Shown: positions 2,302-3,826 of the stretch, piece by piece | Numbering within the stretch: the stretch's first letter is position 1 | Layout of the letters: each line of letters starts with the position of its first letter | Source of the DNA: Gammaproteobacteria bacterium | Lineage (GTDB): Bacteria; Pseudomonadota; Gammaproteobacteria; Nevskiales; Nevskiaceae | Direction: 5' to 3' | Length of the DNA stretch: 64,000 bases | Assembly (NCBI GenBank): GCA_026398815.1 | Contig: JAPLSA010000022.1 | Coordinates: forward strand, 56,328-120,327 | Translations under genes and position numbers: made by a program | The notes under the pieces: model-generated | What the model was told of the DNA's origin: nothing | The model's database searches: none | Seen by the model: only the letters and a program-made list of their open reading frames with translations

Positions 2302-2403
2302 TACTTGGCCTTCTTCTTGGCCTGCTTCTCCGCCTTCTTCTCCTTCATCGTCTTCAGCGGCGCCTTCTTCTCGTTCTTCTTGCTGTCCATGCCTTTGGCC
2401 ATG
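2302..2403 (-). CDS. 33-aa lysine-rich small protein
   Basis: Read on minus strand: MAKGMDSKKNEKKAPLKTMKEKKAEKQAKKKAK*; clean ATG-to-TAA frame, terminator directly downstream; too short for the supplied ORF track. Confidence 0.6.
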
Positions 2404-2454
2404 GTCGTGCTCCGGTGGTGGGGTGGTGGGGTGGTGGTGAAATCTAGTGCAAGT

Positions 2455-2513
2455 CAGCGCGCGCGTCGCGCTTGGCACCGGTGCGCAACCGCAAGCCGTT
2501 CAAGCGGATGAAG
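2455..2513 (-). repeat. Diverged second copy of argG 3' end ([18 protein letters not shown])
   Basis: 52/59 nt identical to 2609-2667; encodes the same 18 residues and stop; all 7 differences synonymous. Confidence 0.85.
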
Positions 2514-2608
2514 CGGCAGCGCGAGCCCTCTGGCGAGGGACCCACCGTGCTTTTCGGTGGGATCGCCAGCAAGGCGAGCACGGCCAGAGGGCTTCATCAC
2601 GACGCTAT
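2514..2608. other. Structured ~95-bp insert between the two argG 3' ends; may include argG terminator
   Basis: Outer stem agccctctggc/gccagagggct (2524-2534/2583-2593), inner tggcga/tcgcca and cccaccg-tgctttt-cggtggg (2541-2561). Confidence 0.6.
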
Positions 2609-3826
2609 TCAGCGCGCGTCGCGTTTGGCACCGGTGCGCAGACGCAGGCCATTGAGGCGGATGAAGCCCTCCGCGTCCTTCTGGTTGTAAGCACCGCGAT
2701 CGTCCTCGAAGGTCGACAGCGTGGCGTCGAACAGCGAGTCCTTCGAGCGGCGACCCAGGTTGTAGATCGCACCCTTGTACAGCTTCAGGCGGACGTCGCC
2801 GTTGACGCGCTGCTGCGACTCGTCGATCAGCGCCTGCAGCATGCGGCGCTCCGGGCTCCACCAGTAGCCGTTGTAGATCAGGCTGGCGTACTTCGGCATC
2901 AGCTCGTCCTTCAGATGCGCCTGTTCGCGGTCGAGGCACAGGCTCTCGATCGCGCGGTGCGCCTTCAGCAGGATCGAGCCGCCCGGGGTCTCATAGCAGC
3001 CGCGCGACTTGATGCCGACGTAGCGGTTCTCGACCAGGTCGAGCCGGCCGATGCCGTGCTTGCCACCGAGCGCGTTCAGGCGGTCGAGGATCTGGAACGG
3101 CGTGCCGGCGACGCCATTGATCGACACCGCATCGCCACGCTCGAAGCCGATGACGATTTCTTCGGCCTCGTTCGGCGCATCTTCCGGATTCTTGGTCCAG
3201 CGCCAGATGTCATCCGGCGGGTTCCACCACGGATCTTCCAGGCCGCCGCCTTCGTAGGAGATGTGCAGCGCGTTGGCGTCCATCGAGTACGGGCTGCCGC
3301 CGCCCGGCTTCTTGGCGATCGGAATCTCGTGCTTGGCGGCATAGGCGAGCAGCGATTCGCGCGAGTTCAGGTCCCACTCGCGCCACGGCGCGATCACCTT
3401 CACCTCCGGCCACAGCGCGTAGGCGCCGAGCTCGAAGCGGACCTGATCGTTGCCCTTGCCGGTGGCGCCGTGGCTGATCGCGTCGCAGCCGGTGCTGCGT
3501 GCGATCTCGACCAGGCGCTTGGCGATCAGCGGCCGCGCGATCGAGGTGCCGAGCAGGTACTCGCCTTCGTAGACGGCGTTGGCGCGGAACATCGGGAACA
3601 CGAAGTCCCGGGCGAATTCCTCGCGCAGGTCGTCGATGAAGATTTCCTTGACGCCGAGTTGCTGCGCCTTCGGCCGGACATGGTCCAGCTCCTCGCCCTG
3701 GCCGATGTCGGCGGTGAAGGTCACCACCTCGCAGCCATAGGTGTCCTGCAGCCACTTCAGGATGACGGAGGTGTCGAGGCCGCCGGAATAGGCAAGCGCG
3801 ACTTTGCGGACCTGGGTTTTGCTCAT
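2609..3826 (-). CDS. argG: Argininosuccinate synthase
   Basis: 405 aa; [46 protein letters not shown]. Confidence 0.98.

What the first reader, a model, noticed from the sequence alone, without database searches (positions are those of the whole stretch)
2455..2667. Diverged duplicate of the argG 3' end with only synonymous differences, flanking a 95-bp structured insert
The last 18 codons plus stop of argG (2609-2667) recur at 2455-2513. The copies differ at 7 of 59 nt, yet both read [18 protein letters not shown] (ctc/ttg, aat/aac, ctg/ttg, cgt/cgg, ctg/ttg, aaa/aag). Neutral decay of a local duplication would not give only silent changes, so both copies appear to come from functional argG genes. 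This is the expected footprint of an element that integrates at the argG 3' end and restores it with its own att copy, since mostly excised or collapsed. argG as an integration site in this lineage would be worth knowing.
Basis: partly seen in the sequence, partly recalled or inferred. Interest (0 to 1): 0.7.

Follow-up and report, generated by a model that had tools for sequence, protein, structure and literature searches.

The report
Gene-end-copying mobile DNA hairpin family
Next to the arginine-synthesis gene argG sits one copy of an apparently undescribed family of about 75-base DNA hairpins that have repeatedly inserted at the very ends of essential genes in one bacterial family, each time leaving the gene intact by supplying a second copy of its end, and each carrying a short stretch complementary to its own insertion point.

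Summary
The repeat is real, with one correction: the outer copy has a 2-nt insertion and no in-frame stop. It is not a relic of a large island. The insert belongs to a multi-copy structured family: four copies in this genome (argG, pntB, htpX, dgt), 35 of 58 genomes of the bacterial family, rare outside (1 of 27 other order genomes, 1 of 273 class, 1 of 398 phylum). Each unit is a ~75-nt hairpin with conserved internal loops and covarying stems; a direct repeat of a housekeeping-gene end (30-105 bp) starts at a fixed point ~20 nt after the core. Just 5' of the hairpin lies a 9-12-nt segment complementary to the target across the insertion point (mean match 8.3 against 5.6 permuted). Targets recur (argG, rlmN, dcd, dgt, htpX, metF, smpB, tsaB, pntB), often as tandem arrays. 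In-gene and outer copies differ almost only silently (133 silent, 21 amino-acid-changing codons), so both were coding when they diverged. Best reading: a small non-autonomous, possibly base-pair-guided mobile hairpin that preserves the gene it enters. Y1/REP transposase, integron integrase and IS110 do not track it; the enzyme is unknown. No description was found in the papers searched.

The parts
2609..3826 (-). argG, argininosuccinate synthase, 405 aa; target gene
   Evidence: NCBIfam NF001770 at 621 bits, cut-off 334; Pfam PF20979 and PF00764
2609..2667 (-). in-gene (proximal) copy of the repeated gene end, D'; encodes [18 protein letters not shown]
2660..2671 (-). target GAGG|GCTTCATC spanning the insertion point (between 2668 and 2667)
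   Evidence: 12-nt perfect complement of the guide-like segment
2587..2598 (-). guide-like segment GATGAAGCCCTC, reverse complement of the target across the insertion point
2534..2581 (-). conserved left arm (GTGCTCGCCTTGCTGG) and hairpin core (CGATCCC-stem-loop-GGGTCCCTCG)
   Evidence: model R1, 75.3 bits, E 2e-15 in own genome; covariation over 29 diverse relatives
2515..2533 (-). right arm and right end of the unit (CCAGAGGGCTCGCGCTGCC); the native gene end begins directly after
   Evidence: fixed boundary over the family
2515..2667 (-). whole repeating unit, 153 nt: D' + spacer + guide-like segment + hairpin + right end; the same unit is tandemly repeated in relatives
2454..2514 (-). outer (native) copy of the argG end, now displaced; 7 silent substitutions and a 2-nt insertion
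2433..2453 (-). native flank after argG, shared with the empty site of relative G010

Best explanation
The insert is one copy of a small non-autonomous mobile hairpin family confined almost wholly to this bacterial family. The mobile part is about 75-80 nt: a 9-12-nt guide-like segment, an imperfect hairpin with conserved internal loops, and a fixed right end. It enters near the end of a gene at a point whose sequence is complementary to the guide-like segment. The gene end downstream of that point is present again on the unit's other side, so the gene keeps its C-terminus and stop codon (or its N-terminus and start codon) and the native end is displaced outward. Further units at the same point, or duplication of units, give tandem arrays. 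Shown: family, structure, fixed right boundary, gene-end repeats, guide-target complementarity, repeated use of the same genes, arrays, silent-only divergence, empty sites in relatives. Inferred: that units move (as single-stranded hairpins or circles), that the guide-like segment directs target choice rather than being copied from the target, and that a recombinase acts in trans. The enzyme is unknown.
For: Four copies in the own genome at unrelated genes: argG, pntB (51-bp perfect repeat), htpX (51 bp, 4 mismatches), dgt. Family model: 35 of 58 family genomes, about 130 copies, up to 11 per genome. 79 of 129 copies have a long flanking direct repeat (null maximum score 12.5), 64 of them starting within -8..+7 nt of the model end, 22 at exactly -1. 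Guide-target complementarity: mean 8.34 against 5.59 for permuted targets, maximum of 300 permutations 6.27, usually spanning about -5..+8 of the insertion point. The segment fits its own genome's target better than the same gene's target in other species (Wilcoxon p 8e-6). At argG, different insertion points (GAGG|GCTTC, TACA|ACCAG, GCTT|ACAACC) go with different matching segments. Silent-only divergence. The non-coding module is 92-94% identical between genera whose argG loci are 79-83% identical. Covarying stems with no G-T excess (20 GT/TG against 31 AC/CA) fit a DNA hairpin better than an RNA.
Against: No enzyme family tested tracks the elements, and no autonomous copy was found. 50 of 129 copies have no detected long repeat; many of these sit at a stop codon of an opposing gene or at a ribosome site plus ATG, so a long repeat is not universal. 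The guide match is poor in some copies (argG of G051, G047, G040; 5-6 nt). Movement was inferred from comparison, not observed. Silent-only divergence could also arise by allele replacement of the gene body after a plain target-site duplication.
Confidence: 0.62

Rival explanations
1. REP-like element moved by a Y1 (HUH) REP-associated tyrosine transposase, by IS200/IS605-type single-strand chemistry with an unusually long guide. This is the most specific enzyme version of the best explanation.
For: Layout matches: a guide 5' of an imperfect hairpin and a cut site 3' of it, as described for REP and IS200/IS605 ends (PMC6006769). In the own genome and in G013 and G007 units lie between dgt and a REP-type Y1 transposase gene (NF047646, 90.8 bits against cut-off 80). 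Structure looks DNA-level.
Against: No GTAG/GTGG tag at the hairpin foot. Y1 genes do not track elements (19/16/8/15, Fisher p 0.18); near-complete genomes G019 and G047 have elements but no Y1 match. The dgt-linked transposase has its own different repeats downstream and also lies after dgt without a unit in G015.
Confidence: 0.25
2. Plain long target-site duplication: an unknown enzyme makes staggered cuts 50-100 bp apart, and only insertions at gene ends survive because the duplication keeps the gene whole. Later allele exchange explains the silent differences.
For: Some repeats extend past the stop codon to just before the guide-like segment (argG of G040); some are perfect (pntB, 51 of 51). 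All insertions inspected preserve gene ends, as a survival filter would give.
Against: Does not by itself explain complementarity to the target, nor 14 silent with 0 non-silent differences in rlmN of G016.
Confidence: 0.25
3. Integron-like system: the hairpin is an attC-like folded single-strand site recombined by an integron integrase.
For: 38 of 58 family genomes, the own one included, carry an integron integrase above cut-off. The unit layout (outer arm pairing with sequence past the cut) recalls attC, and arrays form.
Against: No conserved GTT/AAC boxes at the junction. No association with the integrase (25/10/13/10, p 0.27). G019, G023 and G002 have elements but no integron integrase above cut-off.
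Confidence: 0.07
4. Relic of a larger island that integrates at argG by a tyrosine recombinase.
For: Gene-end restoration with silent differences is the classic sign of such islands.
Against: Same small unit at nine or more genes, tandem arrays of it, no island between repeats in relatives.
Confidence: 0.03
5. A 3'-UTR hairpin with local tandem duplication by replication slippage; no mobility.
For: Hairpins cause slippage; arrays of near-identical units exist (G023, four units).
Against: In single-unit cases the outer gene end is followed by native flank without a hairpin, which tandem duplication of gene end plus hairpin does not give. The module is shared by unrelated genes and is more conserved between genera than the genes.
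Confidence: 0.08

Closest known systems
REP sequences and REP-associated tyrosine transposases (TnpA_REP/RAYT); REPINs
   Same: Short non-autonomous palindrome, many intergenic copies, guide 5' of an imperfect hairpin, presumed single-strand DNA substrate; one unit group lies beside such a transposase gene
   Different: No GTAG/GTGG tag; 9-12-nt target-specific complementary segment; flanked by 30-105-bp copies of a gene end; no co-occurrence with Y1 genes
IS200/IS605 family end recognition
   Same: Hairpin plus guide pairing with a cut or target site; insertion next to the site recognised
   Different: Guide is a few nt there and here spans both sides of the cut; unit carries a gene end; no transposase gene in the unit
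Integron attC sites and cassette arrays
   Same: Folded imperfect hairpin, outer arm pairing across a junction, head-to-tail arrays
   Different: No RYYYAAC/GTTRRRY boxes, no attI, no cassette genes, many chromosomal sites
Genomic islands integrating in gene ends (e.g. at dusA or the trmE 3' end, PMC8409611)
   Same: Integration restores the gene end with an element-borne copy
   Different: About 150-bp unit with no integrase; many different genes; both gene ends and gene starts
MITEs and Rickettsia palindromic elements
   Same: Small, palindromic, can lie within or at genes without destroying them
   Different: No terminal inverted repeats with short fixed target duplication; gene-end repeats instead

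Membership tests
REP / RAYT | GTAG or GTGG tetranucleotide at the 5' foot of the hairpin | tested here: not met
   Consensus of 29 diverse copies around the hairpin foot reads CCACTCGCCTTGCCG-core; no GTAG/GTGG
REP / RAYT | cognate Y1 transposase gene flanked by the element | tested here: inconclusive
   Beside the transposase at dgt in three genomes, but no co-occurrence over 58 genomes
REP / RAYT | transposase cleaves the element in vitro | not testable with these tools
   needs biochemistry
Integron attC | R'' (RYYYAAC) and R' (GTTRRRY) boxes at the recombination point | tested here: not met
   Junction composition shows no GTT/AAC; only A at +1 in 58-65%
Integron attC | presence of an integron integrase | tested here: inconclusive
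   25 of 35 element-bearing and 13 of 23 element-free genomes have it, p 0.27
MITE | terminal inverted repeats with short fixed target-site duplication | tested here: not met
   Repeats are 30-105 bp, variable, and consist of gene ends; only the right end is fixed
Integrase-borne island at a gene 3' end | integrase gene and cargo between att repeats | tested here: not met
   About 95 nt between repeats; no larger state in relatives
IS110/IS1111 (bridge RNA) | DEDD transposase in the host | tested here: not met
   No PF01548 match in the own genome, G019, G047, G023 and others that carry elements
Known RNA families | Rfam match at gathering score | tested here: not met
   Only two sub-threshold matches, neither on the insert

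The most novel reading that the evidence does not exclude
A new class of minimal mobile cassette in which a hairpin-borne DNA guide of about 10 nt chooses a housekeeping-gene end by base pairing, and the cassette carries a functional replacement of that gene end so that insertion is harmless. It would be a naturally retargetable, gene-preserving insertion system acting on single-stranded DNA.
Probability: 0.33. Interest if true: 0.9.

Novelty: new variant of a known kind. Interest (0 to 1): 0.74.

Why it matters
If right, bacteria have a family of tiny mobile hairpins that enter the ends of essential genes without harm by restoring the gene end, with a target choice that looks programmable by base pairing. 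That would link REP-like repeats, guide-based insertion and gene-end integration, and explain small tandem duplications of gene ends. It also gives a testable substrate for finding an unknown recombinase or a new activity of a known one. Silent-only divergence between the copies records exchange of housekeeping-gene ends between species.

Tried and rejected
Larger argG island: rejected. Rfam family: none. Phage or plasmid origin: one unrelated viral-contig match without repeat (L174), no convincing plasmid match. Reverse transcriptase and IS110: patchy, and absent from several element-rich genomes; rejected as general partners. Integron integrase and Y1 transposase: not significantly associated. 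Automatic codon counts over all repeats contained wrong frames and were replaced by 29 curated pairs. Six literature searches found no description; the library is open-access only.

Full report
1. Observation. argG lies on the minus strand (3826-2609). Its last 59 nt recur at 2454-2514 after a 95-nt structured insert. The outer copy is followed by the same flank that directly follows argG at the empty site of relative G010 (TGACTTGAACTAGATTCC...), so the outer copy is the native end and the in-gene copy came with the insert.

2. It is not confined to this genome. Among relatives, about a quarter of family members have argG followed by one to four units of 150-162 bp, each made of a structured insert and a further argG-end copy. 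In arrays the outermost copy is usually the most diverged from the in-gene copy (G007 47, 46, 45, 44 of 48; G047 46, 46, 41; G045 48, 47, 44). Other relatives have no insert (G010, G002) or an unrelated hairpin (G015, G016). No larger island between repeats was seen.

3. It is not confined to argG. The inserts share CGATCCC-stem-loop-GGGNCCCTCG. In the own genome this pattern occurs three times: argG, the pntB start with a 51-bp perfect repeat, and the htpX end with a 51-bp repeat. A fourth, variant copy lies at the dgt end. A pattern search gave matches in 20 of 59 genomes with none for the reversed control pattern. A covariance model from 29 diverse copies, with 9 of 15 pairs showing double compensatory change, finds 35 of 58 family genomes and 8 of 12 genera, but 1 of 27 other genomes of the order, 1 of 273 others of the class and 1 of 398 others of the phylum. 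Two members of the family appear in public records as 'Lysobacteraceae bacterium BC.045' and 'Nevskiaceae bacterium FW106-02_bin.14', inferred from matching contig lengths.

4. Anatomy. Of 129 copies at 94 loci, 79 copies (51 loci) have a direct repeat between left and right flank with score at least 15 (null maximum 12.5). In 64 of 79 the repeat begins within -8..+7 nt of the model end, with a sharp mode at -1; the -8 values are mostly array units where the repeat runs on into the neighbouring unit. The right boundary is thus fixed, about 20 nt after CCCTCG, and the left is not. The repeats are gene ends: 3' ends with stop codon of argG, rlmN, dcd, dgt, htpX, metF and smpB, and 5' ends with start codon of pntB and tsaB. 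rlmN, dcd, smpB and argG were identified by Pfam/NCBIfam; the others were recognised from sequence. Copies without a long repeat often end in TTA or CTA, completing the stop codon of an opposing gene, or sit at a ribosome site plus ATG. In every case inspected gene integrity is kept.

5. Guide-like segment. Just 5' of the hairpin lies a segment complementary to the target gene across the insertion point. In 41 target-distinct cases the mean best match is 8.34 against 5.59 for permuted targets (maximum of 300 permuted means 6.27), and typical pairings cover about -5 to +8. At argG it is 12 nt, GATGAAGCCCTC against GAGG|GCTTCATC. Within one gene, segments match their own genome's target better than other species' targets (9.1 against 7.6, p 8e-6). 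This could be cause (guide) or consequence (copied during insertion). Apart from A at +1 in 58% of targets and no T there, no target consensus was seen.

6. Silent-only divergence. In 29 curated gene-end pairs there are 133 silent and 21 non-silent codon differences. If the outer copy were neutral since insertion and the gene copy accepted only silent changes, about 57% should be non-silent; P about 2e-29. Against a more lenient 36.5% expectation P is 2e-10. Pairs are not fully independent, since several share a gene and ancestry. Both ends therefore diverged while coding: the in-gene end was carried in by the unit, or the gene body was later replaced by another species' allele. Older outer copies do lose coding sense (G007 copies 3 and 4).

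7. Spread. The non-coding module at argG is 92-94% identical among G047, G045, G040 and G030, whose argG loci are 79-83% identical across genera. This points to horizontal spread or strong constraint.

8. DNA or RNA. Non-Watson-Crick cells in the stems are 20 GT/TG and 31 AC/CA. A conserved RNA should show an excess of G-U. This favours a DNA hairpin, weakly.

9. Enzyme. Y1_Tnp (19 of 35 element genomes, 8 of 23 others), integron integrase (25 of 35, 13 of 23), RVT_1 and IS110 were tested; none tracks the elements. A REP-type Y1 transposase (NF047646) lies next to units at dgt in three genomes, which is suggestive, but near-complete genomes G019 and G047 have elements without any Y1 match.

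10. Verdict. A real, apparently undescribed family of small hairpin elements with gene-end repeats and target-complementary segments. Mobility and guidance are inferred. It works somewhat like REP/IS200-IS605 ends and somewhat like attC, but fails the defining sequence tests of each. I file it as a new variant of small non-autonomous palindromic elements, with a categorically new mechanism possible.

Noticed in passing
own genome G000:C29:1771-2712 (outside the window, same contig): Integron integrase (TIGR02249, 477 bits); 38 of 58 family genomes have one above cut-off, so this bacterial family is rich in integrons.
   Followed up: partly
L255:1159-1866 (own genome, contig C25): REP-type Y1 transposase directly downstream of dgt and a variant unit; a TCTGACCCCAATTA-type repeat follows the gene.
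   Followed up: partly
L005 and L009 (G016, G015), directly after argG: A different insert at the same place: inverted repeat TCTCACGCAGAGAACGC...TTCTCTGCGTGAGAA, unrelated to the described family.
   Followed up: no
L153, L184 (G025, G036): Tandem hairpin units of 111 bp at an operonic gene start; the unit is open in frame on the opposite strand (MSHPARDPRSGIAGKAS...), so it may be translated as an N-terminal extension.
   Followed up: partly
window 2302-2402, minus strand: Small lysine-rich ORF (MAKGMDSKKNEKKAPLKTMKEKKAEKQAKKKAK) after the argG unit, conserved in relatives, followed by a terminator-like hairpin near 2243-2283.
   Followed up: no
L112 (G019 argG array): The third hairpin is cut off after its core and has no gene-end copy behind it, perhaps a decayed or ancestral unit.
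   Followed up: no
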